From assembly GCA_003550425.1 (NCBI GenBank), contig PUKE01000285.1, positions 1 to 34,784 of the forward strand: DNA of 34,784 bases, written 5' to 3'. The notes below the pieces were generated by a model, which saw only the letters and a program-made list of their open reading frames with translations, searched no databases and was not told the origin of the DNA. The stretch comes from Nitriliruptoria bacterium (GTDB taxonomy: Bacteria > Actinomycetota > Nitriliruptoria > Euzebyales > Egibacteraceae). Positions 1 through 31,813 of this stretch are shown here, one piece after another (position 1 is the stretch's first letter; every line of letters starts with the position of its first letter). The position numbers and the translations under genes were made by a program.

Positions 1-407
1 GCGAGGAGATAGCCGAGCAGGACGGCCTCGTCCTCGTCGAGGCCATCGCCGGCCGCGGCCTCCTCGGCCCCGAAGGCCGCCGAGACCACCGTGTCGCCCG
101 CCTGGATGCTGCCGGCCTCGCGCCAGACGACCTCCCCGTGGTCACCGCGCACGCGCAGCGGGTGGTTGTGGGTCACCTCGAGGCTGCGCCCGGTGCGCAG
201 CGTCAGCCGCACGACGGGCTGGCGGCCGTTGTGGGTGAGCGCGGCGATCCCCTCGAGCGCGCCGCGCTCGTTGACCGCGCGCAGCCCCTGATCGCGGACG
301 TCGGTGACGCGCGAGGCACAGGTGGCGGGCTGGCCGGCGCGCGCGAAGACCTCTTCGATGGTCTCCAGGCCCCGATCGGTCCACAGGGTGGTGCCGGCCA
401 CGAGGCA
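1..407 (-). other. Intein inserted in the RecA Walker A motif (N-terminal splicing domain, start of probable homing endonuclease domain)
   Basis: Block [21 protein letters not shown]; block [15 protein letters not shown] (TxxH); then QAGDTVV and EAVLLGYLL, consistent with LAGLIDADG block C at the window edge. Confidence 0.93.
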
Positions 408-614
408 CTTGCCGCTGCTCTCGGGCCCGTAGATCTCGGTGACGCGCCCACGGGGGACGCCGCCGATGCCCAGCGCCACGTCCAGGCTGATGGCGCCGGT
501 CGGGATCGCCGAGACGGGCTCGGCGACGCCCTCGCCGAGCTTCATCACCGCGCCCTTGCCGTACTGCTTCTCGATCTGGCCGACTGCCATGTCGAGCGCT
601 TTGTCGCGATCCAC
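1..614 (-). CDS. recA: Recombinase RecA, N-terminal extein (69 aa) interrupted by an intein; 3' part runs off the left edge of the window
   Basis: Minus-strand frame open to the window edge (absent from the ORF track because truncated). GTG start at 614: [69 protein letters not shown], then [20 protein letters not shown]... (intein). I translated the frame codon by codon to position 3 and found no stop. Confidence 0.95.
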
Positions 615-727
615 CTGGGTCCTCCTCGCTGGCTGCGGGCGCTGGTTCGGTGACTGGAGCCGCACGGTACCGGTGGGGTGGGACACGGCGACGCAGGCGG
701 CGCCGTGGGCTGTGGATGCCATGCTAG

Positions 728-741
728 CGAACCGGTGTTCG
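728..741. promoter_or_regulatory. SOS/LexA box (CGAACCGGTGTTCG)
   Basis: Matches the Gram-positive/actinobacterial GAAC-N4-GTTC palindrome, extended to CGAAC-N4-GTTCG; ~115 bp upstream of the recA start. Confidence 0.8.
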
Positions 742-891
742 ACCGCGGGGGAGGTCGCGCACCGTCCCGGCCTCGCCTCGCGGGCGCGACCCTGCGCCGG
801 GCAGCGGCGCGCGGCACCATCCTCCCAGCCCGTCCACCCGAGCCCCGCGTGGGCTCCGACGGGCCGCGGCGCCGAGCGCGAGAGGAGCGAG

Positions 892-1857
892 GTGGTGAGC
901 GGGAGCCGACCGACGGCGGTGACCCGAGGCGGGTTCCTGCTCGTGGCCGCCGCCGCGGCGCTGTGGGGCACCGATGGGCTGTTCCGCTTCGGACCCGCCG
1001 AGGGGCTGCCGGCCAGCACGATCGTCGCGGTCGAGCACCTGATCCTCGTGGTGCTGCTCGCGCCGGTGCTCGTGCGCGCCACGCGCCGCGCCCGCGCGAC
1101 GTTCGACCGCGGTGACGTCGTCGCGCTCGTGCTGGTCGGCGTGGGCGCCTCGGCCGTCGCGACGGTGCTGTTCACCGCAGCCTTCGCCTTCGGCGACCCC
1201 AACACCCCGCTGCTGCTCCAGCAGCTGCAGCCGCTGTTCGCGGTCCTCGGCGCGCGGCTGGTCCTCGGCGAGCGACTGCTGCGGCGCTACCCGCTGTTCT
1301 TCGTCGCCGCCGTGGCCGGCGCCTACCTCGTGACCTTCGAGGACCCGAACGACGCCACCATCGCCGGGGCCGCCCCGGCGCTGCTCGCGGCCGCCGCCGC
1401 GGGCCTGTGGGGCATGGGCACGGTCCTCGGGCGGCGCCTGACCGCCAAGGTCACCTTCACCGAGCTGGCAGCGCTGCGGTTCGGCGTGGGGCTGCCGGCC
1501 GCGATCGCGCTGCTGCCGATCGGCGGCGGCGCGGCGGCCGCGGCGACCCTGGACGGCGAGGCGCTCGCCTCCCTGCTCCTCCTCGCGCTCATCCCCGGGC
1601 TGCTCGGGCTCACCGTCTACTACCGAGGGCTGCGCGGCACGCCGGCCTCCAGCGCCACGCTCGCCGAGCTGGCCTTCCCGTTGAGCTCGCTGCTGGTCAA
1701 CTACCTCGCCTTCGGGGCAACCCTGACGCTCACCCAGGGGCTGGGGGTCGCGCTGCTCGCCGGCACGATCGCCGCCATGGGGCTGGCGCACAGCCGCCGG
1801 CCCGAGGCCACCGGCGTGCAGGTGCGCCACAGCGTCGCCGACGCCGGCGGGCGCTGA
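892..1857 (+). CDS. EamA/DMT-superfamily transporter
   Basis: Multiple hydrophobic segments, two EamA-like repeats ([44 protein letters not shown]). GTG starts at 892/895 preceded by a purine-rich RBS (gaggagcgagg). Confidence 0.85.
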
Positions 1858-1879
1858 CGGCGCGCGGCGGCGTGGTCGG

Positions 1880-3421
1880 TCACCGGGCCTCGTCGTCGTA
1901 CTCGCGGGCCCGGTGGGCCTGGAGCTCGCGCATCCGACGTCGACCCGGCATCGCCAGCGCCGCGACGAGCGCGAGGAGCAGCACCCCGAAGGCGACCTCG
2001 AACACGCGGTTGTAGGCCGCCTGGGCGGCCTCCACCTCAGCGGGCGTGGACACCGCCGGCGTGATGGTGCCGAGCTGGGCCACGAGCAGCGCGGCGAGGA
2101 TGGCCGTGCCCACCGCGCTGGCGACCTGGCGGTTCAGCGAGCGCAGCGCCGAGGCCTGGGTGATCAGTCGGTTGGGCACCGCGTTGATGCCCGCCACGTT
2201 CAGCGGGATGCGCATGAGGCCGGTGCCGAGCCCCTGGGCCAGCAGCACGCCGGTGATCCACCACACCGACGTCGTCGGGGTGAGGTTGGCCAGCTGCCAG
2301 GTCGTGGCGCACATGATCGACAGGCCGACCAGCAGCGGGCCGCGGGCGCCGACCCGATCGGCGAGCCACCCGCCGACGGTCATGGTCGCCGCGACCCCGA
2401 TGGCCGAGGGCGCCATGATCAGCCCCACGTCCTGGGCCGAGAGGTCGCGCAGCACCTGCAGCTCGACCGGCAGGAAGTTCAGGCGCGCGAAGGTGACCAC
2501 GGTGATCATCCAGACCACCAGCAGGGACACGACGAACGTCGGCGTGGCCAGCAGCCGCGGCTCGACGATCGGGTGAGCGCGGCGCAGCGAGCGACGCCCG
2601 AGCGCCACCAGCACGACGACCCCGAGCACCAGCGCCGCCACCGTCGGCGGGGCGTCGAAGCCCCAGTCGCCGGCCTGGCGAGCGCCGACCACCAGCAGCG
2701 CCACGCCGAGGAACGCCAGCGCCCAGCCGGCGGTGTCCAGCGGTCGGGCCTCGCGTCGCGCCGGGTCGCGCAGCAGGCGCGCGGCCAGCGGCACCGCCAC
2801 CAGGCCGAGCACCACCAGCCCCGCGAAGATCAGCCGCCAGCTGCCCTGGGTGACCACCAGCCCGCCCAGCGGCGGGCCCAGCGCCGGGCCCGCCATCACC
2901 GCGACCCCGCGGATGCCGAGCACCAGGCCGCGACGATGCGGCGGGAACACCGCGAGCACCATCGCCATGCCCAGCGGCATCAGCGCGCCACCGCCAGCCC
3001 CCTGCACGAAGCGCGCGGCCAGCAGCGCCTCGAGCGAGGGCGCGAGGGCGCTGAGCAGCGAGCCGAGGGTGAACACCGACAGGCTCGCCACGTACACGCG
3101 CTTGTGCCCGAAGCGGCCGGCGAACCAGGCGGTGGCCGGCTGCACTGCGACGACGGCCAGCAGGTAGGTGGTGATGACCCAGTCGACGTCGAGCAGGCCA
3201 CCGGGCCCGAGGTCGGCGGAGATCTGCGGCAGCGCCACCCCGAGGATCGTGGTGTTGAGCACCACGAGATAGCTGCCGACCAGCACCACGCCCATGACGA
3301 TCCATGGGCGCCAGCCCGCGCGCGCGGCGCGGACCGCGGCGCCATCGCCCGCGCTGGGGTCGTCGGTAGTCGTGCGGTCGGCGTCCGGGCCGTCTCGGTC
3401 TGGGGGTGGCGACGCGGTCAT
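1880..3421 (-). CDS. DHA2-family (EmrB/QacA-type) MFS drug efflux transporter, 513 aa
   Basis: ~14 TM segments; VVLNTTILGVALPQI, DVDWVITTYLLAVVAVQPATAWFAGRFGHKRVY, ALGPPLGGLV motif C-like. Confidence 0.9.
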   Translation of the reverse strand: MTASPPPDRDGPDADRTTTDDPSAGDGAAVRAARAGWRPWIVMGVVLVGSYLVVLNTTILGVALPQISADLGPGGLLDVDWVITTYLLAVVAVQPATAWFAGRFGHKRVYVASLSVFTLGSLLSALAPSLEALLAARFVQGAGGGALMPLGMAMVLAVFPPHRRGLVLGIRGVAVMAGPALGPPLGGLVVTQGSWRLIFAGLVVLGLVAVPLAARLLRDPARREARPLDTAGWALAFLGVALLVVGARQAGDWGFDAPPTVAALVLGVVVLVALGRRSLRRAHPIVEPRLLATPTFVVSLLVVWMITVVTFARLNFLPVELQVLRDLSAQDVGLIMAPSAIGVAATMTVGGWLADRVGARGPLLVGLSIMCATTWQLANLTPTTSVWWITGVLLAQGLGTGLMRIPLNVAGINAVPNRLITQASALRSLNRQVASAVGTAILAALLVAQLGTITPAVSTPAEVEAAQAAYNRVFEVAFGVLLLALVAALAMPGRRRMRELQAHRAREYDDEAR

Positions 3422-3585
3422 GGGAGCCCCGAGGCTAGCCCGCGGCGGCTGGCCGGCCGCCGCGGCCGCGGCCGCGGCGCGCCCCTATCCGCACGGTGTG
3501 TCGGCCGCGCGGCGAGAACACGGCCTTGGACGACACAGCTCGAGCGAGACGCCGGGCGTGGATCGCGATCAGGCCGCGCATCACG

Positions 3586-3601
3586 GGTGTGACGACACAC
3601 C
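3586..3601. promoter_or_regulatory. Operator-like palindrome GGTGTG-ACGA-CACACC
   Basis: Perfect 6-bp inverted repeat around a 4-bp centre, ~165 bp upstream of the MFS start. Confidence 0.45.
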
Positions 3602-3641
3602 TGGGCAGACCGCGGGGCCGGCGGCGACGACACACCTGGGC
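3591..3641. repeat. Direct repeat gacgacacacctgggc x2 (3591-3606, 3626-3641), 35-bp spacing
   Basis: 16/16 identical copies in the gap between the MFS and HTH_42 genes; a shorter related copy (gacgacacagct) lies near 3530. Confidence 0.85.
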
Positions 3642-3659
3642 GGACAGCGGGCGCGGCGG

Positions 3660-4766
3660 TCAGGCCGGGTCGGCGACCTCGACCTCGGTCGACTCGCCGG
3701 CGAGGGCGAGCAGCGCGAGCATGCGGTCGGCCTCGGCGAGCAGCCCGGCGCGGTCGGCCTCGGCCAGCAGCGCGAAGGGCTCCAGGACCACCCTGACGTG
3801 GTCGGGGGCACGATCGATGCGCCAGGTGCCCGCCACGAACCCGTCGATCAGCAGGGTGGGCTGCACGCGCGCGCCGGCGCGGAACACCCGCGGGCGTCGC
3901 TGCGGCGGGATGATCCGGCTGCGGTCGTCGTGGGCCATGAGGACGTTGTCGTAGGCGGGCAGCAGCCGCGGCGGCGCGGGCTCGTCGCCCGCGGGGCGCG
4001 GGGCGCCGGGCACGTCGAACAGCTCCAGGCCCCGCTCGTCGCGCAGGACCTCGAGGTGGGGGCGCAGCTCGGGCAGCACCGCCTGCTGGCGGGTCATGCT
4101 CGTGAAGGCCTGCATGTCCACGACGCCGGCCGGGCCATAGGCGGCGAGGTAGCGCCACAGCAGCGTGGCCTCGTGGGAGACCGAGGCCGGCTCGGCCTCC
4201 AGCCAGTCGGCGGCGGTGGCCAGGCGCGGGGCGTCGTCGTGGTCCCACGTGCCGGCCGGCGGCAGGTGCACCAGTGGCAGGGCGGTGGCCACCGCCCAGG
4301 TCAGCCCGGCCGGGTCCTCGTCCGGCGCATGCGCGGCGAGCACCGCGCCGAGCTCGGCGTCGGTCAGCGGGTCGGATGCCAGCGCGGCGCGCGCGACCTC
4401 CACCAGGCGGGGAACGTCGACGCGCTGCCACACCTCCCCGAACAGCCCGCGCGTGGCCCGCTCGAGGGCCGGCTGGACGGCCACGGCCAGCCGCAGCAGG
4501 TCCCGCGCCGACACCAGATGCGCCGCCGCGCGCACGAAGGGGGCCCGCACGAGGCGACGCTGGGCCAGCAGGTCGGCGACCTCGTCGGGGTGATAGGCGC
4601 TGAGGCGAGCCCACAGCCCGAGGTGGGGCGGCTCGGCCTCCTGGGCCTGGACCGCCACCAGGTGCTCGATGGCGGCCAGTGGGTCCAGCGTGGCGCGCTC
4701 CAGCAGCAGTTGGCGCGCGAGCAGCGCCCGGTTCAGCTCGCGGCGGGTGAGGACCGTGTCGGACAT
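3660..4766 (-). CDS. Winged-helix HTH_42 (DUF1006/AlkZ-like) protein, putative DNA glycosylase, 368 aa
   Basis: RRELNRALLARQLLLER...IEHLVAVQAQEAEPPHLGLWARL, FVRAAAHLVSARDL, RVFRAGARVQPTLLIDGFVAGTW are characteristic of the HTH_42 family; Q40-A-Q42 matches the Q-aliphatic-Q motif of AlkZ-like glycosylases. Confidence 0.85.
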   Translation of the reverse strand: MSDTVLTRRELNRALLARQLLLERATLDPLAAIEHLVAVQAQEAEPPHLGLWARLSAYHPDEVADLLAQRRLVRAPFVRAAAHLVSARDLLRLAVAVQPALERATRGLFGEVWQRVDVPRLVEVARAALASDPLTDAELGAVLAAHAPDEDPAGLTWAVATALPLVHLPPAGTWDHDDAPRLATAADWLEAEPASVSHEATLLWRYLAAYGPAGVVDMQAFTSMTRQQAVLPELRPHLEVLRDERGLELFDVPGAPRPAGDEPAPPRLLPAYDNVLMAHDDRSRIIPPQRRPRVFRAGARVQPTLLIDGFVAGTWRIDRAPDHVRVVLEPFALLAEADRAGLLAEADRMLALLALAGESTEVEVADPA

Positions 4767-4835
4767 GGCGGCGCTCGGGGCTCGGGGGTCTGGGGTCGGG
4801 ATCAGGGCGCTGGGCGCTGGGCTCTTGGCTCGAGG

Positions 4836-6122
4836 TCAGGTGCGCGGGGGGTCGGTCTCGCCGGCCAAGACCCGGCGGGCGAGGTCGAGCGCCGTGGCCG
4901 AGGCCATCCGCTGGATCTCCACCCGGGTGCGGGCGGGCACCTGACGGCGACGGTGCCGCTCGGCCGCGGGCTCCTGCCGTCCGTCCCAGACCGCGGCGAT
5001 GACGGTGCCGACCTCGGCGTCGCCCTGGGGCTCCGGTCCCGCGACGCCGACCAGCCCGAGGCCGACGTCGGCGCCGCACCGCTGCGCCGCGCCACGCGCC
5101 AGGGCGGCCGCCACCGCCTCGTCGACCGGGCCCCTGGCGGCGAGCAGGTCGCGGTCGACCCCGCCCAGCGTCGCCTTGAGGTCGGTGGCGTAGCACAGCA
5201 GCCCGCCGCGGAACCAGGCGCTCGCGCCGGGCACGGCCACCAGCCGCTCCCCCACGCGCCCGGCGGTGAGCGACTCGGCGACCGCGAGGGTGTGCCCACC
5301 GGCGGCGAGGAGGCGGGCGACCTGGTGCTCGGGCCCCTCGTCGTCGATGCCGGCCACCGCCGGGCCGAGGCGACCCGCGATCGCGTCGACGACCGGCTGC
5401 GAGCGGGCGACGGCCTCCTCGCGGGTGGCGTCCTTGGCCGTGACGCGCACGCGCACCTCGCCGCCCGAGGCGAGGAACGCCACGGTCGGGTTCGCGCGAC
5501 CGTGCTCGTCCTCCAGGCCGGCGACGAGGTCGCCGAGGCGGTCGGCGACGTCGGACTCCCCGATCCCCGACGTGCGGACCAGGCGGCTGATCGTCGCGCC
5601 CTGACCGGCGGCCTCGGACAGGGCGGGCAGCAGATCGCGGTGCGCGAGCTCGTGAAGCTCCCATGGCGGCCCCGGCAGGCACCAGACCTCGGTGCCATCA
5701 GCGAGCGTCACCACGAAGCCGGCGGCCGTGCCGGCGGGCCACAGCACCCGCGCGCCCGCGGGCAGGTCGCACTGGACGAGGTTGCGCTCGGGCATCGACC
5801 GGTGCATGCGGGCGAAGCGCTCGCGCAGGTGGTCCACGAGCCCCTGGTGGCGCTCGAGGGGCACCCCGGCGAGGTCGGCGACCACGAAGCGGGTGAGGTC
5901 GTCCTGCGTGGGGCCCAGCCCGCCGCCGACGATCACGACGTCGGCCCGGTCGGCGGCCTCCGCCAGGGCCGCGGCGAGCCGCTCGGGGTTGTCGCCGACG
6001 ACGGTGTGGCGGTGCACGTCGACGCCGATCTCGGCCAGGCGGCTGGTCAGCCACGTCGAGTTGGTGTCGACGATGTCCCCCAGCAGCAGCTCGCTGCCGA
6101 CGGCGACGATCTCTGCGCGCAA
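4836..6122 (-). CDS. cinA: CinA family protein (competence/damage-inducible; MocF-like + NMN deamidase domains)
   Basis: TTG start at 6122: LRAEIVAVGSELLLGDIVDTNSTWLTSRLAEIGVDVHRHTVVGDN...GGLGPTQDDLTR; C-terminal VAESLTAGRVGERLVAVPGASAWFRGGLLCY. Confidence 0.93.
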   Translation of the reverse strand: MRAEIVAVGSELLLGDIVDTNSTWLTSRLAEIGVDVHRHTVVGDNPERLAAALAEAADRADVVIVGGGLGPTQDDLTRFVVADLAGVPLERHQGLVDHLRERFARMHRSMPERNLVQCDLPAGARVLWPAGTAAGFVVTLADGTEVWCLPGPPWELHELAHRDLLPALSEAAGQGATISRLVRTSGIGESDVADRLGDLVAGLEDEHGRANPTVAFLASGGEVRVRVTAKDATREEAVARSQPVVDAIAGRLGPAVAGIDDEGPEHQVARLLAAGGHTLAVAESLTAGRVGERLVAVPGASAWFRGGLLCYATDLKATLGGVDRDLLAARGPVDEAVAAALARGAAQRCGADVGLGLVGVAGPEPQGDAEVGTVIAAVWDGRQEPAAERHRRRQVPARTRVEIQRMASATALDLARRVLAGETDPPRT

Positions 6123-6204
6123 CGGGGCCTCGGAGGGGTGGCGGGGCGGGCTCGGGCGGCCGCGCAGTATAGGCCGCCGTCGTGCGCGCGCCCCGCGGGG
6201 GCGC

Positions 6205-6532
6205 TGTGCACCCAGTGGCCCCCTGGCCTGCGCTCTGGGTGCAGATCCGACCACCACACGGCCGCTGTGCACCCAGTCGCCGGCGGGACGCCCGAACGGA
6301 GGGCCGATGTGCACCCAGTGGCCCCCTGGCCTGCGCTCTGGGTGCAGATCCGACCACCACACGGCCGCTGTGCACCCAGTCGCCGGCGGGGCCAGGGAAC
6401 GAAGGGCCGATGCGCACCCAGTGGCCGCCTGGCCTGCGCTCTGGGTGCAGATCCGACCACCACGCGGCCGCTGTGCACCCAGTCGCCGGCGGGACGCCCG
6501 ACCGGGTGCACGAACGACCACATGTGGTCCGA
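6205..6532. repeat. 103-bp tandem repeat array (~3 units: 6205, 6308, 6411), each containing TGCACCCAG / CTGGGTGCA / TGCACCCAG
   Basis: TGTGCACCCAGTGGCC(C/G)CCTGGCCTGCGCTCTGGGTGCAGATCCGACCACCAC(A/G)CGGCCGCTGTGCACCCAGTCGCCGGCGGG recurs with exact 103-bp period; the third unit is longer and ends at the palindrome 6504-6541. Confidence 0.95.
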
Positions 6533-17832: not shown

Positions 17833-18663
17833 ATGAGCTCCCAGGACCCCCGCAACCCGCCCGACCCCGACCACGAGGTGCGCGACGACGAGACCGAGTG
17901 GCTCGGCGAGGAGCGCGGGGAGAGCGATGACGCCACCCGCGCGCTCGGCGGCGACGACGCGACCCAAGCGCTCGGCGGCGACGACGCGACCCAAGCGCTC
18001 GGCGGCGACGCGACCCAGGCGCTCGGCGGCGCAGGGCGCGTCTACTCCTACGAGCACGACCCCCAGGCCGCCGGCGAGCAGGAGCCCCTCGCCGAGGAGC
18101 CGGTGGCCGACGAGCCCGGTCCGGCCGATCCCGAGCCGCGCCGCGGGCGCGACGTCGCGATGGCCGTCATCGGCGCGCTGGTCGGGTTCATCCTGGCGTT
18201 CGTGATCGTCGCGCTCGGCACCGGCGAGGCCGACGGCGTCGACCCCGCCGAGGTCGAGGCGCAGATCGCCGCGCTCGAGGCCGAGGTCAGCGCGCTGGAG
18301 GACGAGCTCGAGGCCCGCGACGAGCAGCTCGACGAGCTCGCGGCCGAGCGCGACGAGGCGCTGGAGGAGGCCGTGGAGGGCGCCGACGAGCTCGAGGAGC
18401 GCCAGGAGGCGCTGCTCGAGCGCGAGCGCGACGTCGAGGAGCGCACCGCCGAGCTGAACGAGCGCGAGGCCGAGCTCGACGCCCGTGCCGAGGAGCTCGA
18501 CGCGCGCGAGGCCGCGATCGCCGAGCAGGAGGACGGCGCGCCCCCGCCCGAGGCCGACGACGAGAACGGGGAGTTGCCGCTGCCCGACGTGGACGGCGAG
18601 GCCGCCGAGGGCTTCGTGGACCGCGTGCTCGACGGCATCCGCGACCTGTTCGGCGGCGACTGA
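17833..18663 (+). CDS. Single-pass membrane protein with N-terminal (D)DATQALGG repeats and long extracytoplasmic coiled coil
   Basis: RRGRDVAMAVIGALVGFILAFVIVALGTG TM segment; heptad-rich EVEAQIAALEAEVSALEDELEARDEQLDELAAERDEA...; acidic N-terminus with four repeats. Confidence 0.85.
   Translation: MSSQDPRNPPDPDHEVRDDETEWLGEERGESDDATRALGGDDATQALGGDDATQALGGDATQALGGAGRVYSYEHDPQAAGEQEPLAEEPVADEPGPADPEPRRGRDVAMAVIGALVGFILAFVIVALGTGEADGVDPAEVEAQIAALEAEVSALEDELEARDEQLDELAAERDEALEEAVEGADELEERQEALLERERDVEERTAELNEREAELDARAEELDAREAAIAEQEDGAPPPEADDENGELPLPDVDGEAAEGFVDRVLDGIRDLFGGD
17926..18030. repeat. 27/24-bp minisatellite encoding DDATRALGG-DDATQALGG-DDATQALGG-DATQALGG
   Basis: Units at 17926, 17953, 17980 (27 bp) and 18007 (24 bp). 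Confidence 0.95.
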
Positions 18664-29351: not shown

Positions 29352-31813
29352 GAGCGGCGCCGGCGGCGGCGACCACCGCCGCCGTCGTCGTCACCCCCGC
29401 CGCGACGCGAGCGCGACTCGCCGCCGCCCTCGTCGCCGCCGCGACGCCGCGAGCGCGTGCGGCTGCGGCCGCGGCCACCGCCCTCGCCCTCCGAGGAGCC
29501 CTTGGGCTCGGCGTCCTCGGGCTCGGGGCCGGTCGAGGCCTTGGCGGCGGGCTCGGGCGCGGGCTCCGGGGCGGCCTCGGGCGCGGGCTCGCCGCCGCCC
29601 TCGGCGCCCTCGGGGTCGGCGAGGACGAGCGAGAACTTGCCGTCCCCGCGGACCTCGGCCACCTCGACCCACAGCTTGTCGCCGACGCTGACGGCCTCAT
29701 CGGCGTGCGACAGCCGCTGGCCACCCGGCTTGGGCAGCTTCGAGATGTGCAGCAGGCCATCCGAGCCGGGCGTGAGCGACACGAACGAGCCGAAGTCGGC
29801 GTTCTTGACGACCGTGCCGTAGTACCGCTCGCCCTCCTGGGGCACCACCGGGTTGGCGATCGCGCGGACGCGGTCCAGCGCCGCCTGGGCGGCGATCCCG
29901 TCGGAGGAGTAGATCTGGACCAGGCCGCGGCCGTCGACGTCCTCCACGGAGATGTCGGCGCCGGTCTCGTCCTGGATCTCGTTGATGATCTTGCCCTTGG
30001 GCCCGATCACCTCGCCGACCTTCTCGAGCGGGATGTACTCGGTGAGCACCCGCGGCGCGTTCGGGTTCATCTCGGCGCGCGGCTCGGCGATGGCCTCGGC
30101 CATCGCGTCGAGGACCTCCAGGCGCGCGTCGCGGGCCTGGCCCAGCGCCTGGCGCAGGATGTCGGCGGAGATGCCCGCGAGCTTGGTGTCGAGCTGCAGG
30201 GCGGTGACGAACTCGCGCGTGCCCGCCACCTTGAAGTCCATGTCGCCGAAGGCGTCCTCGGCGCCGAGGATGTCGGTCAGCGTCTGGAGCTTGCCGTCCT
30301 GGCTGACCAGGCCCATGGCGATGCCGCCGACCGGCGCGTAGATCGGCACGCCGGCGTCCATGAGCGACAGCGTCGAGGCGCACACGCTGGCCATCGAGGT
30401 GGAGCCGTTGGAGCTCATCACCTCGCTGACCAGGCGCAGGGCGTAGGGGAAGTCCTCCTTGGGCGGCACGACCGCGGCGACGGCGCGCTCGGCGAGGGCG
30501 CCATGGCCGATCTCGCGGCGCTTGGGGCCGCGCATGAAGCCGGCCTCACCGGTGGAGAACGGCGGGAAGTTGTAGTGGTGGATGTAGCGCTTCTCGGTGT
30601 GGGGGTCCACGGTGTCCAGGCGCTGGGCCTCGCGGGTCATGCCGAGGGTGAGGATGTTGAGCACCTGGGTCTCGCCGCGGGTGAACAGCCCGGTGCCGTG
30701 CATCCGCGGGATCAGCCCCACCTCGGCCGACAGCGGCCGGATGTCGCGCGGCCCGCGGCCGTCGATGCGCACGCCCTCGTGGACGATGCGCTTGCGCACC
30801 GTGGTCTTCTCCAGCGACTTGAAGGCGTTCTTGGCCTGCGCCTCCAGCTGGTCGTCGGTGACCTCGACGGCGCTGGCCTCCTCGTCGTCGAACACCGCGT
30901 CGATGGCGGCGTCGCGCAGCGCGTCGATCCGCGCCTCGCGCTCGGCCTTGTCGAGCTGGTCGTCGCCGACGATGCCGGCGAGCTCGTCGGCCGCCCGGCG
31001 CTCCACCGCGGCGTAGACGCGCTCGTCGTAGTCGGGGTAGACGGGGAAGGTCTTCTCCGAGGTGGTCCCGACCTGGTCGACGAGCTCGCGCTGGGCGTCG
31101 CACAGCTGGCGCAGGTAGGGCTTGGCCTCGTCGAGCGCGTTGGCGAGCACCTCCTCGGTGGGGGTGGCGCCGCCGGTGTCGGCCGAGACGACCGCGTTCT
31201 CGGTGGCCTCCGCCTCGACCATGAGGATGTCGATCTCGTCGGTCTCGTCGTTGAGGCGGCCGGCGACCACGAGGTCGAAGATCGCCTCGGACGCGAGGGT
31301 CGAGAAGGTCGGGAAGGGCGTCCAGCGCCCATCGCGGTCCATGGCCATGCGCAGCCCGGCCACGGGGCCGTCGAAGGGCAGGCCCGACAGCATCGTGGCG
31401 ACCGACGCGCCGTTGATCGCGGCGACGTCCGGCGGGTGCTCCTGATCGGCCGACAGCGTCATGATCACGACCTGCACCTCGTTGCGCAGGCGCTCGTCGA
31501 AGGTCGGCCGCAGGGGGCGGTCCACCAGGCGGCAGGTCAGGATCGCGTTCTCGCTGGGACGGCCCTCGCGCTTGAAGAAGCTGCCGGGGATCCGCCCGGC
31601 GGCGTACATCTTCTCCTCGTAGTCGACCGTCAGGGGGAAGAAGTCGAGGTGCTCCTTCGGCTTCGACGACGCGGTGGTCGTGACGTTCAGGACGGTGTCG
31701 CCCATCCGCACGACCGCGGAGCCGTCGGCGAGCCCGGCCAGCTTGCCGGTCTCGAAGGTGATGTCGGTGTCGCCGACGCGGGTGTGCGCGTGCTTCGTGC
31801 CGAGCGTGCCCAT
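29348..31813 (-). CDS. pnp: Polyribonucleotide nucleotidyltransferase (PNPase) with low-complexity R/G/D/E-rich C-terminal tail
   Basis: GRIPGSFFKREGRPSENAILTCRLVDRPLRP, RTRGETQ-type RMHGTGLFTRGETQVLNILTLG, EVMSSNGSTSMASVCASTLSLMDAGVPI, KH (EVIGPKGKIINEIQDETGADISVEDVDGRG) and S1 domains. Confidence 0.97.
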   Translation of the reverse strand: MGTLGTKHAHTRVGDTDITFETGKLAGLADGSAVVRMGDTVLNVTTTASSKPKEHLDFFPLTVDYEEKMYAAGRIPGSFFKREGRPSENAILTCRLVDRPLRPTFDERLRNEVQVVIMTLSADQEHPPDVAAINGASVATMLSGLPFDGPVAGLRMAMDRDGRWTPFPTFSTLASEAIFDLVVAGRLNDETDEIDILMVEAEATENAVVSADTGGATPTEEVLANALDEAKPYLRQLCDAQRELVDQVGTTSEKTFPVYPDYDERVYAAVERRAADELAGIVGDDQLDKAEREARIDALRDAAIDAVFDDEEASAVEVTDDQLEAQAKNAFKSLEKTTVRKRIVHEGVRIDGRGPRDIRPLSAEVGLIPRMHGTGLFTRGETQVLNILTLGMTREAQRLDTVDPHTEKRYIHHYNFPPFSTGEAGFMRGPKRREIGHGALAERAVAAVVPPKEDFPYALRLVSEVMSSNGSTSMASVCASTLSLMDAGVPIYAPVGGIAMGLVSQDGKLQTLTDILGAEDAFGDMDFKVAGTREFVTALQLDTKLAGISADILRQALGQARDARLEVLDAMAEAIAEPRAEMNPNAPRVLTEYIPLEKVGEVIGPKGKIINEIQDETGADISVEDVDGRGLVQIYSSDGIAAQAALDRVRAIANPVVPQEGERYYGTVVKNADFGSFVSLTPGSDGLLHISKLPKPGGQRLSHADEAVSVGDKLWVEVAEVRGDGKFSLVLADPEGAEGGGEPAPEAAPEPAPEPAAKASTGPEPEDAEPKGSSEGEGGGRGRSRTRSRRRGGDEGGGESRSRRGGGDDDGGGGRRRRRRS

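What the first reader, a model, noticed from the sequence alone, without database searches (positions are those of the whole stretch)
1880..4766. Candidate genotoxin-tolerance module: AlkZ-like glycosylase + DHA2 efflux pump beside SOS-controlled recA
The 368-aa HTH_42 protein has Q40-A-Q42 in VAVQAQEAEPPHLG. Established: AlkZ-type DNA glycosylases of this family use a Q-aliphatic-Q motif, whereas YcaQ/AlkX types use Q-aliphatic-D, and AlkZ homologues can confer self-resistance to DNA-alkylating natural products in Streptomyces. Here the gene directly precedes (same strand) a DHA2 drug exporter and lies between cinA and recA. The combination looks like export plus lesion unhooking.
Basis: partly seen in the sequence, partly recalled or inferred. 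Interest (0 to 1): 0.65.

Follow-up and report, generated by a model that had tools for sequence, protein, structure and literature searches.

The report
AlkZ-like DNA-repair glycosylase beside exporter
The gene very probably encodes a DNA-repair enzyme of the known AlkZ type that cuts out chemically damaged guanines, but its place next to a drug exporter and recA is a peculiarity of one bacterial genus and is weak evidence for a joint toxin-tolerance system.

Summary
Window 3660-4766 (-) encodes a 368-aa PF06224 (HTH_42, AlkZ-like) protein. Q40 and Q42 align with the catalytic motifs of Streptomyces AlkZ (QAQ) and E. coli YcaQ (Q45/D47), are invariant in a 42-sequence alignment, and the confident model matches AlkZ best (TM 0.78). 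It therefore most likely is an N7-alkylguanine DNA glycosylase of the AZL (QxQ) type. In a tree it falls in a large QxQ clade, spread over many phyla, that excludes AlkZ itself. The organism is a Nitriliruptoria MAG with one PF06224 gene and no sign of PKS or NRPS clusters, so antibiotic self-resistance is unlikely. The glycosylase-DHA2 pair, with an opposite-strand EamA gene, sits in the cinA-recA interval only here and in one sister species (86-87% identity, purifying selection). Nine other cinA-recA intervals lack it, close DHA2 orthologues occur in genomes without detected AZL, and no full-length DHA2 adjoins the AZL at 79 other loci. The SOS-like box belongs to recA (perhaps EamA), not to the pair. 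The 'module' is possible but weakly supported. A better-supported pairing emerged in the same clade: an epoxide hydrolase directly upstream, in three phyla.

The parts
3660..4766 (-). AZL: PF06224 / HTH_42 AlkZ-like DNA glycosylase, 368 aa
   Evidence: Pfam 235.5 bits; AF2 pLDDT 94.7; Foldseek best hit AlkZ 5UUJ TM 0.78, second AlkX/YcaQ 9zd6
4641..4649 (-). codons for the catalytic-type motif Q40-A41-Q42
   Evidence: aligned with AlkZ QAQ and YcaQ Q45/D47; invariant in A1
1880..3421 (-). DHA2-family (EmrB/QacA-type) MFS exporter, 513 aa
   Evidence: TIGR00711 above cut-off; 87% identity to the sister species, dN/dS 0.20
3422..3659 (-). 238-bp AZL-DHA2 intergenic gap holding a 35-bp tandem duplication (3584-3653); 43-44 bp in the sister species
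   Evidence: no promoter- or terminator-like site found
895..1857 (+). EamA-family transporter, convergent with DHA2 and divergent from recA; part of the same genus-specific insertion
   Evidence: Pfam EamA 89.8 bits; ortholog in L032 about 4361-5326
727..742 (-). SOS-like box TCGAACACCGGTTCGC between recA and EamA
   Evidence: one mismatch to TCGAACN4GTTCGA; kept in the sister species
1..608 (-). recA 5' part with intein inserted after the P-loop lysine (intein from about 401 down), truncated by contig end
   Evidence: complete in L032 5642-7987
4836..6122 (-). cinA (competence/damage-inducible protein A family), upstream neighbour
   Evidence: Pfam CinA, MoCF_biosynth, CinA_KH; conserved cinA-recA neighbours in the class

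Best explanation
The gene encodes a monofunctional DNA glycosylase of the AlkZ-like (QxQ) branch of HTH_42. By analogy with AlkZ, HedH4 and YcaQ it binds duplex DNA in the concave face of three winged helices, and the two glutamines promote hydrolysis of the N-glycosidic bond of N7-alkylated guanine, leaving an AP site for base excision repair. In this organism it most likely serves general protection from environmental or endogenous alkylating compounds, not self-resistance. The gene arrived in, or was moved into, the ancestral cinA-recA interval together with a DHA2 exporter and an EamA gene in the ancestor of one Nitriliruptoria genus. AZL and DHA2 may share a transcript, but neither their functional coupling nor any SOS control is shown. 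Shown: family, motif, fold, clade, conservation, insertion. Inferred: activity, substrate class, role.
For: PF06224 235 bits. QxQ aligned with AlkZ and with YcaQ Q45/D47, whose alanine mutants are inactive (PMC7367128). In HedH4, Q41A and Q43A are at least 225- and 10-fold slower (PMC9040887). Model pLDDT 94.7, best PDB fold AlkZ, next AlkX. Tree: QxQ/HxQ branch including AlkZ, support 1.0, separate from QxD and HxS/T types; P0001 in a 120-member QxQ clade (0.96) without AlkZ. Sister species keeps cinA-AZL-DHA2-EamA-recA at 85-90% identity with dN/dS 0.12-0.22. cinA-recA intervals of nine relatives, six in the same family and three in other families, lack all three genes. Only one PF06224 gene, no condensation domain, one full ketosynthase match.
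Against: No enzymatic data exist for any member of this clade that I could identify. Overall identity to AlkZ is only about 20%, and AZL enzymes can be very substrate-specific (HedH4 does not excise 7mG; PMC9040887), so the substrate cannot be read off. TxnU2, LldU5 and HedH4 sequences were not at hand, so whether they fall in this clade was not tested.
Confidence: 0.78

Rival explanations
1. A genuine two-part genotoxin-tolerance operon: DHA2 exports an environmental alkylating or crosslinking compound and the AZL removes the adducts that form; both are co-transcribed.
For: Same strand, adjacent, kept through about 0.4 dS of divergence in two species, 43-44 bp gap in the sister. AZL and an EmrB/QacA antiporter (HedH4, HedH1) occur together in the hedamycin cluster (PMC9040887).
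Against: Seen in one genus only, so one event. No full-length DHA2 directly adjoins the AZL at 79 other homologous loci, and MFS genes within 6 kb at 11 of them look like background (background not measured). DHA2 orthologues of 68%, 52% and 50% identity sit in genomes G048, G334 and G015 with no AZL match at E 1e-40, for G048 and G015 none at 1e-5. The gap is 238 bp in the window.
Confidence: 0.2
2. Self-resistance to a DNA-alkylating natural product made by the organism itself, as for AlkZ and azinomycin.
For: QxQ motif and AZL branch shared with AlkZ.
Against: No condensation domain and one full-length ketosynthase match in a 95%-complete genome. The Pfam-annotated neighbours are housekeeping genes such as ftsK, RNase J, DHDPS, dapB, PNPase and an acyl-CoA carboxylase. 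P0001 is outside the AlkZ subclade.
Confidence: 0.03
3. A QxD-type (YcaQ/AlkX) housekeeping ICL glycosylase.
For: Same fold family; AlkX is the second fold hit.
Against: Third motif position is Q, not D; QxD sequences form their own group.
Confidence: 0.02
4. A non-catalytic HTH_42 or winged-helix protein, for example a regulator.
For: Winged-helix architecture; the Lhr C-terminal domain shares the fold.
Against: Both catalytic-type glutamines are invariant while most columns vary, which is not expected for a protein that lost catalysis.
Confidence: 0.05

Closest known systems
AlkZ of Streptomyces sahachiroi (PDB 5UUJ; azinomycin B self-resistance)
   Same: PF06224 fold (TM 0.78), QAQ at the same alignment columns, same AZL branch of the tree
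   Different: About 20% identity, separate subclade, not in a biosynthetic cluster, single copy, neighbours cinA, DHA2, EamA and recA
YcaQ/AlkX (E. coli, A. baumannii, T. fusca; PDB 9zd6)
   Same: Same superfamily and fold, aligned first glutamine, likely general protection role
   Different: QxD motif, separate group of the tree, TM 0.63-0.64
HedH4 / TxnU2 / LldU5 (QxQ AZL enzymes of the hedamycin, trioxacarcin and LL-D49194 clusters)
   Same: QxQ motif, AZL family (from PMC9040887, PMC8934636); the hedamycin cluster also holds an EmrB/QacA antiporter
EmrB/QacA DHA2 exporters (TIGR00711)
   Same: The DHA2 neighbour scores above the family cut-off
   Different: Only 32% identical to the second DHA2 of the genome; substrate unknown

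Membership tests
HTH_42 / PF06224 DNA glycosylase superfamily | Significant match to PF06224 over the full domain | tested here: met
   235.5 bits, positions 1-328 of 329
HTH_42 / PF06224 DNA glycosylase superfamily | Three winged-helix plus beta-domain fold | tested here: met
   AF2 pLDDT 94.7; Foldseek 5UUJ TM 0.78, 9zd6 TM 0.63-0.64
AZL (AlkZ-like) subfamily | (Q/H)xQ catalytic motif at the AlkZ position | tested here: met
   QAQ aligned with 5UUJ QAQ; invariant in A1
AZL (AlkZ-like) subfamily | Groups with AlkZ and apart from QxD (YQL) and HxS/T (AZL2) proteins | tested here: met
   147-member QxQ/HxQ group containing AlkZ, support 1.0
AZL (AlkZ-like) subfamily | Usually in or near biosynthetic clusters, often several copies (reported for Streptomyces; typical, not strictly defining) | tested here: not met
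   One copy; no condensation domain, one full ketosynthase match
AZL (AlkZ-like) subfamily | Excision of N7-alkylguanine adducts or ICL unhooking | not testable with these tools
   Needs purified enzyme
AlkZ proper (azinomycin resistance glycosylase) | Membership in the AlkZ subclade | tested here: not met
   AlkZ is in a 27-member sister group; P0001 in a 120-member group without it
YQL / AlkX | QxD motif | tested here: not met
   Q42 instead of D
SOS regulon member | LexA/SOS box upstream of the AZL or DHA2 transcription unit | tested here: not met
   Only 727-742 (recA) and one chance-level site at 30888
DHA2 EmrB/QacA exporter | TIGR00711 above curated cut-off | tested here: met
   286.6 bits against 230.2

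The most novel reading that the evidence does not exclude
In one Nitriliruptoria lineage a free-standing export-plus-repair operon, outside any biosynthetic cluster, pairs an AZL glycosylase of an uncharacterised environmental clade with a dedicated DHA2 pump to tolerate a foreign DNA-alkylating compound, the counterpart of the epoxide hydrolase-AZL pairs seen elsewhere in this clade.
Probability: 0.18. Interest if true: 0.45.

Novelty: new member of a known kind. Interest (0 to 1): 0.25.

Why it matters
Experimental work on AZL enzymes that I could read concerns biosynthetic clusters of Streptomyces. This gene belongs to a QxQ clade spread over many phyla, for which I found no tested member, in an organism without evident alkylator biosynthesis; it argues that AZL enzymes also serve environmental tolerance. 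The neighbourhoods of that clade, above all the recurrent epoxide hydrolase-AZL pair, make a testable prediction about substrates: adducts of epoxide-bearing genotoxins.

Tried and rejected
(1) Co-regulation with recA through SOS: rejected; the only relevant box is recA's, and an oppositely oriented EamA gene intervenes. (2) Self-resistance: no condensation domain, one full ketosynthase match. (3) A widely conserved AZL-DHA2 pair: rejected. A first tblastn with low-complexity masking found no DHA2 near any other AZL; that was partly an artefact, and the profile search found MFS genes within 6 kb at 11 of 79 loci, though no full-length one directly adjacent to the AZL. (4) The promoter and terminator scan found nothing; it has little power in DNA of 76% GC. 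(5) Rfam: no match in the window. (7) The first DHA2 dN/dS used a wrong start base; corrected.

Full report
Observation. The reading frame at 3660-4766 (-) encodes 368 aa with VAVQAQEAEPPHLG at residues 37-50. Pfam assigns PF06224 AlkZ-like at 235.5 bits. The gene at 1880-3421 (-) is a DHA2 exporter, TIGR00711 above cut-off. The order along the - strand is ftsK, cinA, AZL, DHA2, with EamA on the opposite strand before recA. The window is a whole contig of a 2.9-Mb, 95%-complete MAG. Its closest relative in the search collection is a MAG labelled Nitriliruptoria (PWER01000158, locus L032).

Is it an AlkZ-type enzyme? In an alignment of 42 relatives from many phyla, Q40, Q42, R54 and R79 are among 12 invariant columns. 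A profile from that alignment finds 5UUJ (AlkZ) at 6e-49, with QAQ on QAQ. E. coli YcaQ aligns with its Q45-I-D47, residues whose alanine substitution abolishes 7mG excision (PMC7367128). HedH4 Q41A and Q43A are at least 225- and 10-fold slower than wild type (PMC9040887). The AlphaFold model has mean pLDDT 94.7. Its best PDB matches are AlkZ (TM 0.78), then AlkX/YcaQ bound to DNA (0.63-0.64), then the Lhr C-terminal domain.

Which branch? I gathered the PF06224 genes of 14 genomes and further relatives. The set contained QxD, HxQ, HxS/T and QxQ types. In a FastTree tree rooted on QxD, the QxQ and HxQ proteins including AlkZ form one group (147 members, support 1.0). Inside it P0001 lies in a 120-member clade (0.96), all QxQ except one LxQ, that does not contain AlkZ; AlkZ sits in a 27-member group that also holds HxQ types. 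So this is an AZL enzyme in the broad sense but not an AlkZ proper. I found no characterised member of its clade, but could not include HedH4, TxnU2 or LldU5.

Is there a module? In the sister species the order cinA-AZL-DHA2-EamA-recA-recX is the same, with gaps of 35 bp (cinA to AZL) and 43-44 bp (AZL to DHA2). Protein identities are 85-90% and dN/dS is 0.15 (cinA), 0.22 (AZL), 0.18 (EamA) and 0.20 (DHA2), so all are under purifying selection. In nine relatives where cinA and recA were found on one stretch (L148, L149, L150, L151, L153, L154 of the same family; L155, L156, L157 of other families), none of AZL, DHA2 and EamA lies between them. The three genes are therefore a genus-level insertion and count as one event. 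The DHA2 has orthologues of 68% (G048), 52% (G334) and 50% (G015) identity; none has an AZL nearby, and these genomes show no AZL at E 1e-40, for G048 and G015 none at 1e-5. Among 80 AZL loci with about 10 kb of flank, a full-length DHA2-type gene directly next to the AZL occurs only in the sister species; MFS genes within 6 kb occur at 11 others, and the only adjacent one is a short, opposite-strand match in L034. In the window the gap is 238 bp and holds a 35-bp tandem duplication. The scan of 1850-5000 gave no promoter- or terminator-like site, which says little at this GC content. Co-transcription stays open; functional coupling is possible but rests on one lineage. A precedent for the combination exists in a biosynthetic cluster: hedamycin has HedH4 (AZL) and HedH1 (EmrB/QacA) (PMC9040887).

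SOS. A near-consensus actinobacterial SOS box lies at 727-742, between recA and EamA, and is kept in the sister species. None lies near cinA, AZL or DHA2. DHA2 and EamA converge, so recA and the AZL-DHA2 pair are separate transcription units. cinA and recA are neighbours in all relatives examined, so nearness to recA comes from the insertion site and is not evidence for a damage-response link.

Role. One PF06224 gene, no condensation domain and one full-length ketosynthase match plus three fragments (one is expected for fatty-acid synthesis) leave no sign of a PKS or NRPS cluster. The Pfam-annotated neighbours in the window are housekeeping genes, among them RNase J, DHDPS, dapB, PNPase, an M16 peptidase and an acyl-CoA carboxylase. 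General tolerance of environmental or endogenous alkylators is the best reading; it is inferred.

Side result. In the same QxQ clade an epoxide hydrolase of the EHN type (PF06441) lies directly upstream of the AZL, same strand, in four Paenibacillus genomes, an Acidothermales MAG and a Ktedonobacteraceae MAG. In Paenibacillus a WYL/HTH_11 regulator follows (L095: 4825-5991, 5995-7095, 7104-8042). In a 397-genome sample of the phylum, 21 genomes have both AZL and EHN genes; four have EHN directly upstream with gaps of -1 to 32 bp, against 0.025 adjacent pairs expected. The expectation is a rough count that assumes 950 genes per Mb and independence; two of the four genomes share a genus. The EHN-linked AZLs are scattered over the clade. 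No paper in the held library names AlkZ together with epoxide hydrolase. Azinomycin, hedamycin and trioxacarcin alkylate through epoxides (PMC9040887), so the pair suggests detoxification plus repair for epoxide genotoxins. The window's genome has no EHN match at E 1e-50, so this does not rescue the module here, but it points to the kind of substrate to test.

Verdict. The protein assignment is sound and ordinary: a new member of a known family. The proposed module is not excluded but weakly supported, and the SOS link is not supported.

Noticed in passing
L049 4740-8086, L051 4740-7969, L095 4825-8042, L100 4735-8051, L067 4842-7116, L093 4794-7107; genomes G086, G100, G311, G404: An EHN-type epoxide hydrolase gene lies directly upstream of the AZL glycosylase in Bacillota, Actinomycetota and Chloroflexota (4 seen against 0.025 expected in a phylum sample); in Paenibacillus a WYL/HTH_11 regulator follows. 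Possible detoxification-repair operon for epoxide genotoxins; no held paper names AlkZ with epoxide hydrolase.
   Followed up: partly
window 1-401 (-); L032 5849-6985: recA carries an intein directly after the P-loop lysine (GPESSGK/C); it is 379 aa and complete in the sister species. recA of L149 and L150 also aligns only in widely spaced pieces, suggesting further insertions.
   Followed up: partly
window 6198-6505: 103-bp unit repeated three times upstream of cinA, with GTGCACCCAGT and complementary elements; related 20-mers (up to 3 mismatches) lie on other contigs of the genome, 27 matches against 4 for the reversed control pattern. Similar GTGCACCC elements precede cinA in the sister species.
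   Followed up: partly
window 3584-3653: 35-bp tandem duplication with GACGACACACCTGGGC in the AZL-DHA2 gap, absent in the sister species; its 13-base core occurs at one other place in the genome.
   Followed up: partly
window 17924-18031: Four copies of a 27-bp tandem repeat in the 17833-18663 (+) reading frame.
   Followed up: no
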